This document shows, one piece after another, positions 26,979 to 51,009 of a stretch of DNA of 64,000 bases; position 1 is the stretch's first letter, and each line of letters opens with the position of its first letter. The notes beneath the pieces are model-generated. The model searched no databases, was not told the DNA's origin, and saw only the letters and a list, made by a program, of their open reading frames with translations. This stretch comes from Streptomyces corallincola. GTDB lineage: Bacteria > Actinomycetota > Actinomycetes > Streptomycetales > Streptomycetaceae. The stretch lies in NCBI RefSeq assembly GCF_019104725.1, contig NZ_JAHRXF010000002.1:124001-188000 (forward strand), given 5' to 3'. A program made the position numbers and the translations under genes.

Positions 26979-27148
26979 TCGTTCCCGTGGTGCTCCGGGA
27001 CCGGACATCCGGGGGTAGTGAATGGAGCAAATCCGTTCCCAGAACGGTCAGTTGTAGTGCTGAATGGGAAGCGCGGGGATACACGACGGCGCACGCCCGG
27101 CTCCACACCGAGGGGTGTGCGCCGCAGGCGGCTGAGAGGGGACTGTTC

Positions 27149-28231
27149 GTGCACGCTTTCTCACACGGCACCACAACGCCGACGGCGGTCGCGGTACCGC
27201 CGTCCCTCGCCCTCCCGTTGATCGAGGACGCCTTTCCCCGGCAGCTCCACCCGTATTGGCCGAAGCTCCAGGAGAAGACCCGCCAGTGGCTCCTGGAAAA
27301 GCGGCTGATGACGCCGGAGAAGGTGCGGGAATATGCCGACAGCCTGTGCTACACGGACCTCATGGCGGGCTACTACCTCGGTGCCCCCGACGAGGTCCTC
27401 CAGGCCATAGCGGACTACAGCGCGTGGTTCTTCGTCTGGGACGACCGTCACGACCGCGACATCGTGCACGGCCGCCCCGCCGACTGGTCGCTGCTGCGCC
27501 GACGCCTGCACGCGGCACTCGACGCGCCCCGGCACCACCTGCACCACCAGGACCCACTGGTCGCCGGGTTCGCGGACAGCGTGCTGCGCCTGGACTCCTT
27601 CCTCCCGGTCACCTGGAACGAGCGTTTCGCCCGCCATTTCCACGAGGTCATCGAGGCGTACGACCGTGAATTCCACAACCGGGTCACCGGTACCGTCCCC
27701 ACGGTCGCGGAATATCTCGCGCTCCGGCGGCTCACCTTCGCCCACTGGATATGGACGGATCTCCTGGAGCCGAGCGCCGGATGCGAACTCCCGGAATCCG
27801 TGCGGAAGAATCCCGCTTTCCGCCGGGCGGCGCTGCTGAGCCAGGAATTCGCCGCCTGGTACAACGACCTCTGTTCCCTGCCCAAGGAAATAGCGGGCGA
27901 CGAGGTCCACAATCTCGGCATCAGTCTCATCACCCATGAGGGGCTGACCCTCGAAGAAGCGGTGCGTGAAGTACGGCGCCGGGTCGAGGAATGCGTCACC
28001 GAATTCCTGGTGGCCGAACGGGACGCCCTCGCGTTCGCCGCGTCGCTCGCCGACGGCACCCCGCGCGGCGACGGACTCGCCGCCGCCGTCCGCGCCTGCG
28101 TCGGCAACATGCGCAACTGGTTCAGCTCCGTCTACTGGTTCCACCACGAGTCCGGCCGCTACATGGTGGACACCTGGGACGACCGCTCCACACCCCCGTA
28201 CGTCAACAACGAAGCAGCAGGTGAGAAATGA
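27149..28231 (+). CDS. Epi-isozizaene synthase
   Basis: This class I sesquiterpene cyclase of 360 residues converts farnesyl diphosphate to (+)-epi-isozizaene. The Mg-binding DDRHD is at residues 98-102 and the NSE motif NDLCSLPKE at about 239-247. The protein is nearly collinear with the S. coelicolor enzyme as I remember it, one residue shorter near the N-terminus. GTG 27149 follows GAGAGGGG with good spacing. Its stop overlaps the start of the P450 gene (ATGA), so synthase and oxidase are co-translated. The 170 bp upstream hold a 15-bp palindrome at 27033-27047. Confidence 0.96.
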
Positions 28232-29598
28232 CCGTCGAGTCAGTGCAGCCCGCGACGTCCGGGGCGCCGGAGCCGCGCGACCCGCTCCCGGCCGGTGGCG
28301 CCGTCCCGGTGCTCGGCCACGGCCTGAAACTGGTGCGCGACCCGCTCGCGTACATGGCCGCGCTGCGCGACCACGGCGAGGTGGTGCGCCTGAGGCTCGG
28401 ACCCAAGACGGTGTACGCCGTCACCACGCCGGAGCTGACCGGCGCACTCGCGCTGAACCCCAACTTCACCGTCGCGGGCCCCCTGTGGGAGTCCCTGGAG
28501 GGGCTGCTCGGCAAGGAGGGCGTCGCCACCGCCAACGGCCCCCGCCACCGCCGCCAGCGCCGCACCATCCAGCCCGCGTTCCGGCTGGACGCGATACCCG
28601 GCTACGGCTCGGTCATGGAGGAGGAGGCGCACGCGCTCACCGAGCGCTGGCAGCCCGGCCGCACGATCGAGGCGACCTCGGAGGCGTTCCGCACCGCCGT
28701 GCGCATCGCCGCCCGCTGTCTGCTGCGCGGCGACTTCATGGACGAGCGCGCCGAACGCCTCAGCAACGACCTCACCGTCGTCTTCGGCGGTATGTACCGG
28801 CGCATGGTCGTTCCCCTCGGACCGCTGTACCGGCTGCCCTTCCCGGCAAACCGGGAATTCAACCGGGCATTGGCCGATCTGCATCTGCTGGTGGACGAGA
28901 TCATCGCCGAGCGCCGGGCGAGCGGTCAAAAGCCGGACGATTTGCTGACGGCATTGCTGGAGGCGAAGGACGACAATGGCGACCCCATCGGGGAACAGGA
29001 GATCCACGACCAAGTCGTCGCCATCCTCACCCCCGGCAGCGAAACCGTCGCCTCCACGATCATGTGGCTGCTGCACATCCTCGCCACCCACCCGGAACAG
29101 GCCGAGAAGGTACGCGCCGAAGTCGAATCCGTGACCGGCGGCCGACCCGTCCGATTCGAGGACGTACGCTCCCTCACGCACACCAACAACGTCATCGTCG
29201 AGACCATGCGGCTGTACCCCGCGGTATGGATACTGACGCGCCGCGCGACCGCCGACACCGACCTCGGCGGCTATCGCATTCCGGCCGGTGCCGACATCAT
29301 CCACAGCCCCTACGCCGTCCAGCGCGACCCCCGCTCCTACGACGCCCACCTCGACTTCGACCCCGACCGCTGGCTGCCCGAGCGGGCCAGAGAGGTGCCC
29401 CGGCACGCGATGAGCCCGTTCAGCGTCGGCAACCGCAAGTGCCCCAGCGACCACTTCTCGATGGCGCTGCTCAGCCTGATCGTCGCCGCTGTCTCCGCGG
29501 AGTACCGCTTCGAACCGGTCCCCGGCTCCGACCCGGCCACCCGGGTCGGCATCACGCTGCGCCCGCAGCGGCTGCTGGTACGGCCCGTGGCCTGGTGA
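28228..29598 (+). CDS. cyp170A: Cytochrome P450 CYP170A (epi-isozizaene oxidase)
   Basis: This encodes 456 residues. The haem-binding loop FSVGNRKC puts the axial Cys at 405, and the I-helix has [12 protein letters not shown] in place of the usual AGxDT. The ExxR is in [13 protein letters not shown]170A1 oxidises epi-isozizaene in two steps to albaflavenone. An acidic DDNGD at residues 248-252 corresponds to the DDxxD that has been linked to a second, farnesene-synthase activity in CYP170A1. No ferredoxin or reductase is adjacent. Four-base overlap with the synthase. Confidence 0.95.
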
Positions 29599-42513: not shown

Positions 42514-43602
42514 CTACTCCTCGACGAGCAGCCGTTCCCGCAGCTGGGCCAGGGTGCGGGCCAGCAGCCGGGAGACGTGCATCTGCGAGATGCCGACCTC
42601 CTGCGCGATCTGCGACTGGGTCATGTTCCCGAAGAACCGCAGCAGCAGGATGCGCTTCTCGCGCGGCGGCAGATCCTCCAGCAGCGGCTTCAGGGACTCG
42701 CGGTACTCGACGCCCTCCAGCGCCTCGTCCTCCGCGCCCAGGGTGTCCGCGACCGCCGGTGACTCGTCGTCGGTGTCGGGCACGTCCAGGGAGAGCGTGG
42801 AGTAGGCGTTGGCGGACTCCAGGCCCTCCAGCACCTCCTCCTCGGAGATGGCGAGCTTCTCGGCCAGTTCGTGCACGGTCGGGGAACGGCCGTGCAGCTG
42901 CGACAGCTCCGCGGTCGCCGTGGTCAGCGCGAGCCGCAGCTCCTGGAGCCGACGCGGCACCCGCACCGCCCAGCCCTTGTCCCGGAAGTGCCGCTTGATC
43001 TCACCGACCACGGTCGGGGTGGCGTAGGTGGAGAACTCCACCCCGCGCTCCGGGTCGAAGCGGTCCACCGACTTGATGAGACCGATGGTGGCGACCTGGG
43101 TGAGGTCGTCCAGCGGCTCGCCCCGGTTGCGGAACCGGCGCGCCAGGTGCTCGACCAGCGGCAGATGCATCCGCACCAGCCGGTTGCGCAGCTCCGCGTA
43201 CTCGGGGCTGCCGTCCTTGAGCGTGCGCAGCTCGACGAAGAGCGCACGCGCGCCACTGCGGTCCTGCGGGTCGTGCCGCCCGGCCCGCACCGGCTCGGCG
43301 CCCGCGTCCTTCTCGGCGTACCGCTCGTGCTCGCTCATCGTCCCGCCCGTAGCCCTTCCCCCGGCCCTCGCCCGCGCGCCGGGCGCGGAACCGGCCCCGT
43401 CGCGCTCCGCGGAGGGTGTGCTCCGCACGGTGCCGTCGCCGCCCCCGGCGGCGTCCTGCTCCGGGTGCGGTCTGGCCTGCTCGGGGATGGCCTCGACGCC
43501 TTCCGGCACCCGCCGTGCGTCGTCGGCCGAGCCGCCGTCCCCCGTCCGCAGCTCGCGTGTGCCGCGCTCTTCGTCCCGCACCGGACCGTCCCCGTTCCTC
43601 AC
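42514..43602 (-). CDS. sigH: SigB/SigF-family stress sigma factor SigH
   Basis: GTG 43602 overlaps the prsH stop (GTGA) and gives 362 residues. The first 88 are charged and low complexity, then ATG 43338 begins the conserved body (MSEHERYAEKD; 274 residues). The body has region 2 (VEHLARRFRNRGEPLDDLTQ, GEIKRHFRDKGWAVRVPRR), region 3 and region 4 (NMTQSQIAQEVGISQMHVSR). S. coelicolor SigH also exists as long and short forms, so both starts are likely used. It belongs to the osmotic-stress and differentiation sigma-B-like group and is controlled by the anti-sigma factor encoded just upstream. Confidence 0.93.
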   Translation of the reverse strand: MRNGDGPVRDEERGTRELRTGDGGSADDARRVPEGVEAIPEQARPHPEQDAAGGGDGTVRSTPSAERDGAGSAPGARARAGGRATGGTMSEHERYAEKDAGAEPVRAGRHDPQDRSGARALFVELRTLKDGSPEYAELRNRLVRMHLPLVEHLARRFRNRGEPLDDLTQVATIGLIKSVDRFDPERGVEFSTYATPTVVGEIKRHFRDKGWAVRVPRRLQELRLALTTATAELSQLHGRSPTVHELAEKLAISEEEVLEGLESANAYSTLSLDVPDTDDESPAVADTLGAEDEALEGVEYRESLKPLLEDLPPREKRILLLRFFGNMTQSQIAQEVGISQMHVSRLLARTLAQLRERLLVEE

Positions 43603-44012
43603 GCCGGACCGGGGCCGGCGCCGCGCTGTTTGTAGAGGCTGATGGACACCGTCCGGTCCTCGTCCACGGCGGACGACACCTTGCCCGCGAGCGCCGAGAG
43701 CACCGTCCAGGCGAAGGTGTCGCGGGAGGGCGCGTGGCCGTCGGTGGTCGGCGCGGCCACGGTGACCTCGAGGGAGTCGTCCACCAGCCGGAAGACGCAG
43801 CTCAGCACCGAGCCGGGCACGGCCTGCTGGAGGAGGATCGCGCACGCCTCGTCCACGGCGATACGGAGATCCTCGATCTCGTCCAGGGTGAAGTCCAAAC
43901 GAGCCGCGAGACCGGCCGTGGCCGTACGCAGCACCGACAGGTAGGCACCCGCGGCAGGCAGCCGGACTTCCACGAAGTCCTGGGTCGCGGGCTCGCCAGC
44001 GATCTGGGACAC
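43599..44012 (-). CDS. prsH: Anti-sigma factor kinase-like PrsH/UshX (RsbW family)
   Basis: The 137-residue HATPase fold of the RsbW/SpoIIAB type has IAVDEACAILLQQA as its N box. GTG 44012 is chosen because GGAGG ends five bases upstream; GTG 44018 is also in frame. It binds and inhibits SigH until an anti-anti-sigma factor sequesters it. Translation is coupled to sigH by a four-base overlap. The sequence matches the S. coelicolor sigH neighbour I remember as UshX/PrsH. Confidence 0.93.
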   Translation of the reverse strand: MSQIAGEPATQDFVEVRLPAAGAYLSVLRTATAGLAARLDFTLDEIEDLRIAVDEACAILLQQAVPGSVLSCVFRLVDDSLEVTVAAPTTDGHAPSRDTFAWTVLSALAGKVSSAVDEDRTVSISLYKQRGAGPGPA

Positions 44013-47965: not shown

Positions 47966-48272
47966 GGCGGCCTCCTTCGGGTCGTGCCGCGGAGCCGCCC
48001 GTCGCGGCCCCGTCGTACCGGTGGTGCTCCTGTTGCGCGGGCTTGTCCCGCTGCTTCTCCAACGAGCGTTCGGGGCCCCGGCGTTCACTTGGGGGGCGAA
48101 CCGGTCCGAAACGGCGCCGGGCGGGCCGCGATCCCCCTTTCTGCCCAGTAGTGCGATGATCCATTCCCCCTCTTTCGGGTAATGGCGTGCGCACGGTGCG
48201 TGATGGAAAGCTCGGGTGCGAGACCGGTGTGCGACTCGGCACCGGCCACATACATCGAGAGGGATTCTTTCT
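47966..48272. promoter_or_regulatory. Divergent region between amidase and eshA
   Basis: This 307-bp gap contains both promoters. The eshA-proximal part is A/T-richer (TACATCGAGAGGGATTCTTT) and supplies GAGGG as a ribosome-binding site about 11 bases before ATG 48273. I see no clear operator repeat or terminator. Confidence 0.45.
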
Positions 48273-49679
48273 ATGTCGGTAGGCGAAGAGGTCCGCACGG
48301 AACAGGGGAAGCCGCAGCAGTCCCTCGGCACCGCGGCTGCGCGGAACCTGGCCACCACCACCAAGTCCGTCCCGCAGATGCAGGAGATCACCTCCCGCTG
48401 GCTGCTGCGCTCCCTCCCCTGGGTGGACGTGCAGGGCGGCACGTACCGGGTGAACCGGCGGCTGACGTTCGCGGTCGGGGACGGCCGCATCACGTTCGTC
48501 AAGACCGGCGACCAGGTCGAGGTCATCCCCGCCGAACTGGGCGAACTCCCCGCGCTGCGCTCGTACGAAGACCTGGAGACGCTCTCCGAACTGGCCCGCC
48601 GCTGCCGCCGCCGGGACTACGCGCCGGGCGAGGTGGTCGCCTCCTTCGGCAGCCGTACGGAAGAGGTGCACCTGCTGGCCCACGGCCGCGTCGAGAAGGT
48701 CGGCACCGGCCCGTACGGCGACGACGCGGTGCTCGAAGTGCTCGGTGACGGCTCCTACTTCGGTGAGCAGGCCCTGCTCGACCCGGAGGCCATCTGGGAG
48801 TACACCGCCCGCGCCGACACCGCGTGCACGATGCTGACCCTGAGCCGTCAGGACTTCGAACAGGTCGCCGAGCGCTCCGATTCGCTGCGCGAGCACCTGG
48901 AGGAGCTGCGCACGCTGCCCGACCAGGACACCAACAAGTACGGCGAGAAGGCCGTCGAGCTGGCGTCCGGCCACAGCGGCGAGGCCGACATCCCGCACAC
49001 CTTCGTGGACTACGACGCCCGTCCCCGCGAGTACGAACTGAGCATCGCCCAGACCGTGCTGCGCATCCACTCCCGTGTGGCCGACCTCTACAACCAGCCG
49101 ATGAACCAGACCGAGCAGCAGCTGCGGCTCACGGTCGAGGCGCTGAAGGAGCGCCAGGAACACGAGCTGGTCAACAACCGGGACTTCGGCCTGCTGCACA
49201 ACTGCGAGTACGACCAGCGCCTCCAGCCGCACGACGGGGTGCCCAGCCCGGACGACCTGGACGAACTCCTCAGCCGTCGGCGCGGCACCAAGTTCTTCCT
49301 GGCCCACCCGCGCGCCATCGCGGCCTTCGGGCGCGAGCTGAACAAGCGCGGACTGAACCCGGAGACCATCGACCTCGGCGGCAACCGCATCCCGACCTGG
49401 CGCGGGGTGCCGTTGTACCCGTGCAACAAGATCCCGGTCACCCCGGAGCGCACCACCTCGATCATCGCCATGCGTACCGGCGAGGCCGAGCAGGGTGTGA
49501 TCGGCCTGCGCCAGTCCGGCATCCCGGACGAGATCGAGCCGAGCCTGTCGGTGCGGTTCATGGGCATCAACGAGCAGGCGATCATCAAGTACCTCGTGAC
49601 GGCGTACTACTCGGCGGCCGTCCTCGTCCCCGACGCCCTCGGCGTCCTGGAGAACGTCGAGATCGGCCGGTGGCGGTGA
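48273..49679 (+). CDS. eshA: EshA: family 2B encapsulin shell protein with cyclic-nucleotide-binding domain
   Basis: This encodes 468 residues. After an N-terminal arm and first shell segment (to about 90) comes a cNMP-binding domain (about 92-205) with the phosphate-binding cassette [11 protein letters not shown] followed by an Arg-containing YTARADT. The remainder ([51 protein letters not shown], and the end [19 protein letters not shown]) is the HK97-like encapsulin core. EshA was first described in S. griseus as a growth-linked protein forming large particles. Family 2B shells enclose terpenoid enzymes. The next gene on the strand encodes a polyprenyl synthase, the probable cargo. Confidence 0.93.
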
Positions 49680-49703
49680 CGCCGGTCCACCGCACCGGTA
49701 CGT

Positions 49704-49769
49704 TCCCGCCCTCCGGGGCGGGAGCGCACCGGGGGTACGTGTCCCGCGGGTCCGGGGCGACCCGCGGGA
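49704..49769 (+). promoter_or_regulatory. Two hairpins between shell and cargo genes
   Basis: Stem 1 is a perfect 8-bp repeat (49704-49711 with 49716-49723). Stem 2 is a perfect 11-bp repeat (49742-49752 with 49759-49769). Neither is followed by a T-tract, and the cargo ribosome-binding site lies about 15 bases after stem 2. They could lower cargo expression relative to the shell by partial termination, or stabilise the shell mRNA 3' end. Confidence 0.55.
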
Positions 49770-49797
49770 TCGGGGAGGGTCAGGGGGAGGGATGCGC

Positions 49798-51009
49798 ATG
49801 GCCGAGTTCATGACGGAGACCACGAAGTCCCCGGCGGGTGTCGGTGAACAGCGCGGCCCGCGACCGGGCGGGGACCCGGCGGACGCCGGGCGGCCGCACG
49901 GGCGGCTCGACGGGCCTCCCGACGCGCGGCTCGACGGTCTTCTCGACGCGTCTCCCGACGCGCGGCTCGAAGGCCATGAGGCGGCCGTCCTCCTGGAGCG
50001 CACCCGCGACCGGGTGGACCCCGAACTCCGCGCGGCGCTGGGCACGTTGCCGACCGCCATGCGCCGCGTGTCGCTCTACCACTTCGGCTGGCAGCACACG
50101 GACGGCAGCCCGGCCACCGGCAACGCGGGCAAGGCGATCCGGCCCGCGCTGGTCCTCGCGGCGGCCGCCGCGCTCGGCGGTACGGCGGCCGGTACGGCGG
50201 CGGTCCGTGCCGCAGCCGCGGTCGAACTGATCCACAACTTCACGCTGTTGCACGACGACGTGATGGACCGCGACACCGCGCGCCGCCACCGCCCCACGGC
50301 CTGGACGGTGTTCGGGGTGCCCGACGCGATCCTCGCCGGGGACGCCATGCAGGCGCTCGCGCTCCGGCTGCTGGCCGAGGACCCGCACCCCGCCGCCGCG
50401 CGGGCCGCCGCCCGGCTGGCGCACTGCGTCGTGGAACTCTGCGAGGGCCAGCACACCGACACCGCGCTGGAGAGCCGCCCGCCGCACGAGGTGACGCTCG
50501 CCGAGGTGCTCACGATGGCCGAGGCCAAGACCGGCGCGCTGCTCGGCTGCGCCTGCGCACTCGGCGCGCTGTACGCGGGCGCCGACGACGACGCGGTGGC
50601 CGCGATGGACGGGTTCGGGCGGCAGGCCGGGCTCGCCTTCCAGCTCATCGACGACGTGATCGGCATATGGGGCGACCCGCGCCGCACCGGCAAACCCGCC
50701 GGTGCCGACCTCGCGGTCCGCAAGAAGTCCCTGCCGGTCGTCGCCGCCCTCACCTCCGGCACCCCGGCGGCGGCCGAACTCGCCGCGCTCTACAGCCGCC
50801 CGCACCTCCCCGACGCGGGCGGCGACGACGGCGGGATCGCGCGCATCACCCTCGCCGTCGAGCGGGCGGGCGGCCGGGACTGGGCCCAGGCCGAGGCGGC
50901 GGACCGGATGGCACGGGCCATGCAGGAACTGACCCGTGCCGTACCCGTGCCGGAGGCGGCGGGCGGGCTGCTGTCCCTGGCGGAGTTCGTCACCCGCCGC
51001 TCCAGCTGA
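49798..51009 (+). CDS. Polyprenyl diphosphate synthase, probable encapsulin cargo
   Basis: This encodes 403 residues. ATG 49798 has GGGAGG at suitable distance; ATG 49792 is too close to it. Residues 1-60 are Gly/Pro/Asp/Arg-rich and probably disordered, with three related boxes: RLDG at 36 and 44 and RLEG at 56. From about 62 the isoprenoid synthase fold follows: GKAIRPALVLAAAA, first Asp-rich motif LLHDDVMDRD, and second motif LIDDVIGIWGD with Gly in the fifth place. It should elongate FPP or GGPP-type chains. Position directly after eshA and the long disordered N-terminus fit a cargo-loading domain. Product chain length cannot be deduced. Confidence 0.9.
   Translation: MAEFMTETTKSPAGVGEQRGPRPGGDPADAGRPHGRLDGPPDARLDGLLDASPDARLEGHEAAVLLERTRDRVDPELRAALGTLPTAMRRVSLYHFGWQHTDGSPATGNAGKAIRPALVLAAAAALGGTAAGTAAVRAAAAVELIHNFTLLHDDVMDRDTARRHRPTAWTVFGVPDAILAGDAMQALALRLLAEDPHPAAARAAARLAHCVVELCEGQHTDTALESRPPHEVTLAEVLTMAEAKTGALLGCACALGALYAGADDDAVAAMDGFGRQAGLAFQLIDDVIGIWGDPRRTGKPAGADLAVRKKSLPVVAALTSGTPAAAELAALYSRPHLPDAGGDDGGIARITLAVERAGGRDWAQAEAADRMARAMQELTRAVPVPEAAGGLLSLAEFVTRRSS

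What the first reader, a model, noticed from the sequence alone, without database searches (positions are those of the whole stretch)
48273..51009. Probable protein nanocompartment: family 2B encapsulin (EshA) with a polyprenyl diphosphate synthase cargo
Seen: EshA-like shell gene with a cyclic-nucleotide-binding domain, followed on the same strand by an isoprenoid synthase whose first 60 residues are low-complexity and carry RLDG/RLEG boxes at residues 36, 44 and 56. Known: family 2B encapsulins have such an insertion and enclose terpenoid enzymes through disordered N-termini, as reported for 2-methylisoborneol synthase. Inferred: the boxes are the shell-binding tags and cAMP-like ligands gate the compartment. 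The synthase product and purpose of enclosure are open. No dedicated downstream cyclase is adjacent; the epi-isozizaene pair lies 19 kb away.
Basis: partly seen in the sequence, partly recalled or inferred. Interest (0 to 1): 0.85.

Follow-up and report, generated by a model that had tools for sequence, protein, structure and literature searches.

The report
EshB protein shell with isoprenoid synthase
A gene for a virus-like shell protein lies directly before a gene for an isoprenoid-building enzyme that is predicted to be packed inside the shell; this is a known type of bacterial compartment, and the triple "RLDG" motif proposed as the packing tag occurs in none of the relatives compared, so it is unlikely to be the tag.

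Summary
In detail: a Family 2B encapsulin shell gene (48273-49679) is followed by a prenyl diphosphate synthase (PT; best start 49798) with RLDG/RLDG/RLEG at residues 36, 44, 56. Both pass NCBI's curated shell and PT-cargo models, so the pairing is a known kind, most likely eshB type rather than eshA (inferred). The tag inference fails: three RL[DE]G boxes occur in 1 of 120 homologues (the window itself) and 1 of 122 loci; they sit in a DNA tandem repeat, and the third lies in the first predicted helix of the enzyme. The cAMP-like gate is also weak: tryptophan stands where the phosphate-binding arginine is expected in 110/110 close and 93/109 other shells, and the literature reports no cyclic-nucleotide binding. 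Better docking candidates, untested: the PT's extreme N-terminus (MxEFMTET-like, 69/102 loci) and the shell's luminal loop GNRIPT (102/102 in the long-tail clade). In three genomes the PT is largely or wholly gone while the shell is intact, so the shell may not depend on this cargo.

The parts
48273..49679 (+). Family 2B encapsulin shell protein (most likely EshB type), 468 aa
   Evidence: PF19307 + PF00027; NF041163 767.4 bits over cut-off 400; PDB 9bhu/9bix/9bje
48612..48875 (+). cyclic-nucleotide-binding-like domain inserted in the shell (residues 114-201)
   Evidence: PF00027, 62.7 bits
48795..48797 (+). Trp175 codon, where the phosphate-binding arginine of cAMP/cGMP-binding domains is expected
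   Evidence: W in 110/110 close and 93/109 other Family 2B shells; ungapped register to recalled CRP/PKA motifs; the HMMER alignment puts the arginine of one kinase in a one-residue insertion beside it
49275..49286 (+). diagnostic motif 1, RRRG (residues 335-338), like Sl-Enc2 (RRRK), unlike Sl-Enc1 (TVWK)
   Evidence: alignment; motif defined in PMC12407261
49380..49397 (+). luminal A-domain loop GNRIPT (residues 370-375), candidate docking site
   Evidence: 102/102 in the long-tail clade, 1/8 sister, 0/12 other; luminal position from PMC12407261
49798..51009 (+). prenyl diphosphate synthase, predicted cargo, 403 aa
   Evidence: PF00348; NF041169 482.6 bits over cut-off 450
49798..49821 (+). 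N-terminal box MAEFMTET, candidate tag
   Evidence: recognisable in 69 of 102 clade loci, 50 at the called start and 19 at an in-frame internal start; [ED] at position 3 in 40 of 51 uncut non-redundant tails against 10.5% of 1131 neighbouring genes
49822..49953 (+). disordered linker of the synthase
   Evidence: pLDDT <50 over residues 1-50, first helix from 53
49898..49973 (+). DNA tandem repeat that encodes the three RL[DE]G boxes (49903-49914, 49927-49938, 49963-49974)
50254..50268 (+). first aspartate-rich motif DDVMD
   Evidence: sequence; D153, D154, D157 invariant in 46 sequences
50650..50664 (+). second aspartate-rich motif DDVIG
   Evidence: sequence; D285, D286 invariant in 46 sequences
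48157..48183 (+). conserved upstream element TGATCCATTCCC-CTCTTTCGGGTAAT, promoter-like
   Evidence: footprint over 69 thinned of 81 loci; place

Best explanation
This locus encodes a Family 2B encapsulin shell protein, most likely of the EshB type, and, directly downstream on the same strand, a prenyl diphosphate synthase that is its likely cargo. Inferred mechanism: the shell protein assembles into a closed particle (its motif 1 is like Sl-Enc2, not like Sl-Enc1, which cannot form shells alone), and the synthase is held on the luminal side through its N-terminus, most likely through the extreme N-terminal peptide MAEFMTET with the disordered stretch as a tether; the luminal loop GNRIPT is the best candidate docking site. 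The RLDG boxes are a lineage-private repeat expansion of the linker, and the last one is part of the first predicted helix of the enzyme. The enzyme has both aspartate-rich motifs and probably makes a C15-C20 (most likely C20) diphosphate, which would leave the shell through its pores. The cyclic-nucleotide-like domain probably binds some other small ligand, because the expected phosphate-binding arginine is missing. Shown: gene identities by family models, adjacency, motif distributions, predicted disorder. Not shown: assembly, encapsulation, docking, product, ligand.
For: Curated family models over cut-off for both genes. PT downstream on the same strand in 105 of 110 close loci (window and duplicate genomes included). 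Solved 2B shells match over nearly the whole length (9bhu, residues 8-467). Tail lengths: 100 of 102 loci of the EshB clade >15 residues, 7 of 8 sister Streptomyces loci 7-10, 11 of 12 distant loci 7-14. RL[DE]G x3 in 1/120 homologues and 1/122 loci. AlphaFold2: residues 1-50 disordered, first helix 53-81 contains RLEG 56-59. GNRIPT 102/102 in the long-tail clade, 1/8 and 0/12 outside. N-box: in 51 non-redundant tails whose start was not moved, [ED] at position 3 in 40 and T at position 6 in 30, against 10.5% and 7.5% of 1131 neighbouring genes.
Against: The N-box is not under stronger protein-level constraint than the start of the catalytic domain (pN/pS 0.70 against 0.44, 2346 pairs); 33 of 102 clade loci lack it, the near relatives L083, L007, L008 among them, and in 19 of the 69 that have it the script's own start lies further upstream. 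A short-tail PT (L152) has a GNRIPT shell, and L070 has GNRIPT with an 8-residue tail, so loop and tail are not strictly linked; both may simply mark one clade. PTs not next to shells can have tails as well: 11 of 20 have 14-53 residues, 9 have 0-12. In three genomes the PT is largely or wholly gone while the shell is intact (L025/L095, L089, L029), and no PT over the cargo cut-off was found elsewhere in the genomes behind L089, L095 and L029 (the last is a metagenome-assembled genome), so the shell may have another role. No experiment on this pair was found in the papers seen.
Confidence: 0.68

Rival explanations
1. One reading: the RLDG/RLEG boxes are the shell-binding tags and a cAMP-like ligand gates the compartment.
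For: Three near-identical boxes, two of them in the disordered tail, not explained by composition (0 of 20,000 shuffles). The PF00027 domain is present.
Against: Triple box absent from relatives (1/120, 1/122); third box in a predicted helix of the enzyme; repeat visible at DNA level; long tail absent from PTs in 18 of 20 sister and distant loci; no arginine at the cassette position, Trp instead; reported absence of cyclic-nucleotide binding (PMC12407261, its ref 35).
Confidence: 0.04
2. The synthase is loaded by its folded catalytic domain or by the last conserved residues before the first helix, as relatives with ~9-residue tails would need; the long tail is a neutral or regulatory addition of the EshB clade.
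For: Shell-adjacent PTs with 7-14 residue tails in 18 of 20 sister and distant loci; clade tails range from 8 to 239 residues; short-tail L152 and L070 with GNRIPT shells.
Against: N-box and a mid-tail ERR[GS]PIGTQ-like box persist in otherwise divergent tails (12-mer log-likelihood 280 against at most 155 in 15 shuffles, 53 linkers), although common descent alone could contribute.
Confidence: 0.3
3. The shell has a function or a main cargo of its own and the synthase is a dispensable or facultative partner.
For: PT largely or wholly gone with intact shell in three genomes. A passage of PMC6428758 states that eshA is not required for 2-methylisoborneol synthesis.
Against: PT downstream in 105 of 110 close loci; no GPTGLGT-tagged terpene cyclase was found in the own genome, which is 90% complete.
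Confidence: 0.15
4. Shell and synthase are merely neighbours in a conserved core region.
For: Other neighbours are conserved at the locus too (76 and 73 of 81 loci for two upstream families).
Against: Shell-PT pairs recur in other actinobacterial families (L175, L177, L179-L185, L189, L198, L122/L268), NCBI has a cargo model for such PTs, and PMC8346489 counts 900 PT operons (passage).
Confidence: 0.05

Closest known systems
Family 2B encapsulin with polyprenyl transferase cargo (Andreas & Giessen 2021, PMC8346489, passages; NCBIfam NF041163 + NF041169)
   Same: Shell with inserted cyclic-nucleotide-binding-like domain, adjacent PT, disordered PT N-terminus
   Different: That survey reports no conserved tag motif in PTs; here N-box, mid-box and luminal loop are named as candidates, and long tails appear as a trait of one Streptomyces clade
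eshB, SCO5249 of Streptomyces coelicolor (PMC3878966, passages)
   Same: [quoted passage not shown] sigma gene and epi-isozizaene pair nearby (SCO numbers of these recalled)
   Different: Orthology inferred from synteny and family, not tested against the SCO5249 sequence
EshA with 2-methylisoborneol synthase (PDB 9bhu 'Nucleotide-binding protein'; that 9bhu is this system is recalled)
   Same: 2B shell; motif 1 RRRG and a DLGG-type luminal loop
   Different: Cargo there is a terpene cyclase; the GPTGLGT motif seen in cyclases of other 2B loci has no counterpart in this synthase
Two-component 2B encapsulin of S. lydicus (PMC12407261; 9bje Enc1, 9bix Enc2)
   Same: 2B fold; window motif 1 resembles Enc2
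   Different: One shell found in this genome; no native cargo known for that system
Putative polyprenyl synthetase, PDB 3nf2
   Same: PT fold with DD-x-x-D and DD-x-x-G motifs; nearest solved relative (243.5 bits)
   Different: Aligns only from residue 62 of the window PT on; no tail in the match

Membership tests
Family 2B encapsulin shell | HK97/SrpI-like shell domain | tested here: met
   PF19307 454 bits; NF041163 767.4 bits, cut-off 400
Family 2B encapsulin shell | cyclic-nucleotide-binding-like domain inserted in the E-loop | tested here: met
   PF00027 at residues 114-201, before the SrpI-like match at 217-466; a 2A shell (8t6r) matches on both sides of it, residues 12-62 and 228-467
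Family 2B encapsulin shell | self-assembly into an icosahedral shell | not testable with these tools
   Motif 1 RRRG resembles Sl-Enc2 (PMC12407261); no assembly data
Family 2 encapsulin cargo, polyprenyl transferase (NF041169) | curated model score | tested here: met
   482.6 bits, cut-off 450; the next PT of the own genome scores 400
Family 2 encapsulin cargo, polyprenyl transferase (NF041169) | encoded next to a Family 2B shell | tested here: met
   118 nt downstream; 105 of 110 close loci alike
Family 2 encapsulin cargo, polyprenyl transferase (NF041169) | disordered N-terminal region of 50-100 residues (PMC8346489) | tested here: met
   pLDDT <50 for residues 1-50; but not general among shell-adjacent PTs
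Family 2 encapsulin cargo, polyprenyl transferase (NF041169) | physically inside the shell | not testable with these tools
   needs co-purification or cryo-EM
   three boxes in 1/120 homologues and 1/122 loci, any RL[DE]G in 5/120 and 4/122, the window counted in each
GPTGLGT cargo motif of 2B terpene cyclases | GPTGLGT in the cargo or in a terpene cyclase of the own genome | tested here: not met
   absent from the PT; the in-frame hits in the own genome are not terpene cyclases
functional cyclic-nucleotide-binding domain | phosphate-binding arginine of the cassette | tested here: not met
   Trp175, no Arg in residues 171-179; W in 110/110 and 93/109 shells; register by recalled motifs
IdsB geranylgeranyl diphosphate synthase (NF045549) | curated model score | tested here: not met
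   354.8 bits, cut-off 475

The most novel reading that the evidence does not exclude
In one Streptomyces clade the shell and its synthase evolved a private docking pair: the luminal loop GNRIPT of the shell and the N-terminal MxEFMTET peptide of the synthase on a fast-expanding disordered tether. This was added to an ancestral loading mode that needs only about nine N-terminal residues, while the former cyclic-nucleotide pocket, with tryptophan in place of its arginine, reads a different ligand such as an isoprenoid diphosphate.
Probability: 0.17. Interest if true: 0.62.

Novelty: new member of a known kind. Interest (0 to 1): 0.4.

Why it matters
How Family 2B shells recruit prenyl transferases is open: the 2021 survey saw no conserved tag. 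The comparison removes one candidate (RLDG), suggests that long tails are a derived trait of one clade, and gives two small, testable candidates (N-terminal peptide, GNRIPT loop) plus natural controls: short-tail synthases beside related shells, and shells whose synthase is gone. It also argues against cyclic nucleotides as the gate.

Tried and rejected
Trans-cargo idea: that an unlinked terpene cyclase of the own genome carries the GPTGLGT motif and uses this shell. Rejected: of six pattern matches none lies in a terpene cyclase frame (the reversed-pattern control gave 4 matches). The two-domain cyclase on C79 scores 1136 bits with the cargo cyclase model NF041168, below its cut-off of 1200, and its match stops at model position 714 of 735. 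The genome is 90% complete, so a missing gene cannot be excluded.

N-box as a proven tag: not accepted, because pN/pS is higher than in the catalytic domain and a third of the clade loci lack it. My first count (52 and 41 of 63) was biased, because 12 of the 63 tails had been cut at an internal box; the uncut 51 give 40 and 30.

Tail as a diagnostic of cargo: rejected; 11 of 20 PTs away from shells have tails of 14 or more (for 18 of these 20 the fetched stretch was scanned for a shell, for L285 and L286 it was not).

GNRIPT-tail co-variation as proof of docking: not accepted; one clade shift and exceptions (L152, L070).

EshA label: replaced by EshB type, an inference from synteny.

Rows dropped: one search found 155 loci with a shell followed by a PT; L089 and L253 had no anchor; one search skipped 9 more whose anchor was misplaced (L003, L004, L012, L081, L082, L085, L093, L109, L168); 144 remained, 122 after identical downstream stretches were merged. 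L235 counts as long-tailed (84) by the start caller, though a nearer in-frame GTG would give about 10. Starts are called by script, so single tail lengths can be off. The match lists are capped, and one search lists 120 of 6900 homologues.
Full report
What is there. The window holds a 468-residue shell gene (48273-49679, +) and, 118 nt further on the same strand, a prenyl diphosphate synthase ending at 51009. Pfam finds the SrpI-like HK97 domain and an inserted cyclic-nucleotide-binding-like domain in the first and polyprenyl_synt in the second. NCBI's curated models name both: family 2B shell (767.4 bits, cut-off 400) and family 2 cargo polyprenyl transferase (482.6, cut-off 450). About 91 of the 120 homologues listed for the synthase (of 6900) already carry that cargo name in NCBI. 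So the pairing is a known kind. The synthase start is best placed at 49798 (MAEFMTET): the database copy and most homologues start there and the start caller agrees, though that took 49792.

Genome and name. A protein search of the own genome finds one 2B shell (6.39 Mb, 90% complete); three model matches are counted there, of which one is listed, over the cut-off. The genome is almost certainly a Streptomyces: the 80 nearest loci bear Streptomyces titles apart from one Kitasatospora and two 'Actinobacteria bacterium'. A passage of PMC3878966 names SCO5249 of S. coelicolor eshB, a paralogue of eshA (SCO7699), and reports the eshB promoter to be up-regulated in development. The window region also carries a SigB/F/G sigma gene (42517-43845), a lipid kinase-like gene, ribonucleotide reductase and the epi-isozizaene/albaflavenone pair, and several neighbours are conserved across 81 loci. 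With recalled SCO numbering this matches the SCO5222-SCO5250 region, hence 'EshB type' (inferred).

The RLDG boxes. Three RL[DE]G boxes occur in 1 of 120 homologues, the window protein itself; 4 have one and 115 none. Among 122 distinct shell-PT loci 1 (the window) has three, 3 have one, 118 none. They are not expected from composition (0 of 20,000 shuffles), but the DNA under them is a tandem repeat with 24- and 36-nt spacing. AlphaFold2 with an alignment of 46 sequences gives pLDDT below 50 for residues 1-50 and a first helix at 53-81, so the third box (56-59) is part of the fold; it aligns with the conserved PLDGQEA of relatives (consensus). The boxes are thus a private expansion, not a conserved tag.

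The tail. 155 loci had a shell followed by a PT on one strand; 11 were dropped for anchor problems and 122 distinct ones kept. In the 102 loci whose shells are at least 82% identical to the window's, tails run from 8 to 239 residues by the script's starts. Of 8 sister Streptomyces loci (72-77%) 7 have 7-10 residues and one 84 (start doubtful); of 12 distant loci 11 have 7-14 and one 22. The shell tree puts the 102 in one group (SH-aLRT 99, rooted on the distant loci) and needs 5 changes of the tail label (quick tree with long-branch warnings). The survey of 2021, of which I saw passages only, describes 50-100 residue N-termini and no conserved tag in PTs; the long tail looks like a derived trait of this clade. 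Of 20 PTs that are not beside the shell 11 have tails of 14-53 residues and 9 of 0-12, so a tail by itself is no mark of cargo.

What is conserved in the tail. An N-terminal box of the type M[ATG][ED]F[M]TET, taken loosely, is recognisable in 69 of 102 clade loci, 50 at the called start and 19 at an in-frame start further in. In 51 non-redundant tails whose start was not moved [ED] stands at position 3 in 40 and T at position 6 in 30, against 10.5% and 7.5% of 1131 neighbouring genes. Against it, pN/pS of the box is 0.70, that of the first 40 catalytic residues 0.44 (2346 pairs). A second, mid-tail box like ERR[GS]PIGTQ scores 280 against at most 155 in 15 shuffles (53 linkers), and is degenerate in the window. 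Shared descent explains part of both.

The shell side. PMC12407261 (introduction, section 2.1, first part of the discussion and of the references, and passages) places diagnostic motif 2 on the luminal side and proposes it for cargo loading. In the window this loop ends GNRIPT (49380-49397). It is GNRIPT in 102 of 102 clade shells, 1 of 8 sister and 0 of 12 distant shells. The exception L152 has a short tail, and L070 keeps GNRIPT with an 8-residue tail, so the link is a lead only. Motif 1 is RRRG, like Sl-Enc2; Sl-Enc1, which has TVWK, cannot form shells alone.

The inserted domain. Across 219 distinct full-length shells the position that aligns with the phosphate-binding arginine of cAMP/cGMP domains is Trp in 110 of 110 close and 93 of 109 other shells. 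The register is ungapped and uses recalled CRP and PKA motifs; HMMER's alignment to a protein kinase places that arginine in a one-residue insertion next to it. Either way no arginine stands in residues 171-179. The 2025 paper states, citing its reference 35, that the domain does not bind cyclic nucleotides. A gate by some other ligand stays possible.

Cargo dependence. PT follows the shell in 105 of 110 close loci. Of the five others, L017 is cut by the contig end; L025 and L095 are the same sequence with most of the PT gone; L089 has another internal deletion; L029 has no PT. L040 and L013 have a PT split into two pieces. The genomes behind L089, L095 and L029 hold no other PT over the cargo cut-off (L029 is from a metagenome-assembled genome). 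The shells there are full length. Either these are recent losses, or assembly faults, or the shell does something without this synthase.

Enzyme. Both aspartate-rich motifs are present, with aspartates invariant in 46 sequences. Phe at the fifth place before DDVMD and no insertion in it suggest a C15-C20, most likely C20, product by recalled chain-length rules; the IdsB model is below its cut-off. No terpene cyclase is adjacent; the own genome has three further PTs and four terpene-cyclase domains in three frames. The two-domain cyclase among them is close to, but below the cut-off of, the cargo cyclase model and lacks GPTGLGT.

Verdict. Literature searches in an open-access library listed no paper on PT cargo tags in Family 2B beyond the survey, as far as titles and the passages seen tell; subscription papers and preprints are mostly not held, so this is no proof of absence.

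Noticed in passing
window 48157-48183: A 27-nt element (TGATCCATTCCC-CTCTTTCGGGTAAT) about 90 nt upstream of the shell start is conserved over 69 thinned loci; its end looks like a SigB-family -10 box (recalled consensus; one G of it is variable), and a SigB/F/G sigma gene (TIGR02980, 316 bits, cut-off 234) lies about 4.3 kb away.
   Followed up: partly
L025/L095, L089, L029: The synthase is largely or wholly gone next to a full-length shell in three genomes.
   Followed up: partly
L042: The synthase tail holds several copies of a TPPLHGPAPRPE-like repeat, giving a tail of about 191-239 residues; tails of this clade can expand by repeats.
   Followed up: no
L018, L022, L028, L031, L101, L104, L105, L110: A group of loci starts the synthase at a GTG that appears to overlap the shell stop codon (MTSA[VTI]RR...), without the N-terminal box.
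   Followed up: no
L181, L182, L184: Loci outside the genus with two shells, a short-tailed PT and a terpene-cyclase-like frame with GPTGLGT, on one strand.
   Followed up: partly
G000:C20:33949-34962 (L258): A second PT of the own genome scores 400 bits with the cargo model, below cut-off, and has no shell in the 11 kb fetched around it.
   Followed up: partly
G000:C79 (L281): A two-domain, probably geosmin-synthase-like cyclase scores 1136 bits with the 2B cargo cyclase model (cut-off 1200), without GPTGLGT.
   Followed up: partly
window 26987-29598: Epi-isozizaene synthase and albaflavenone monooxygenase, both over their NCBIfam cut-offs.
   Followed up: yes
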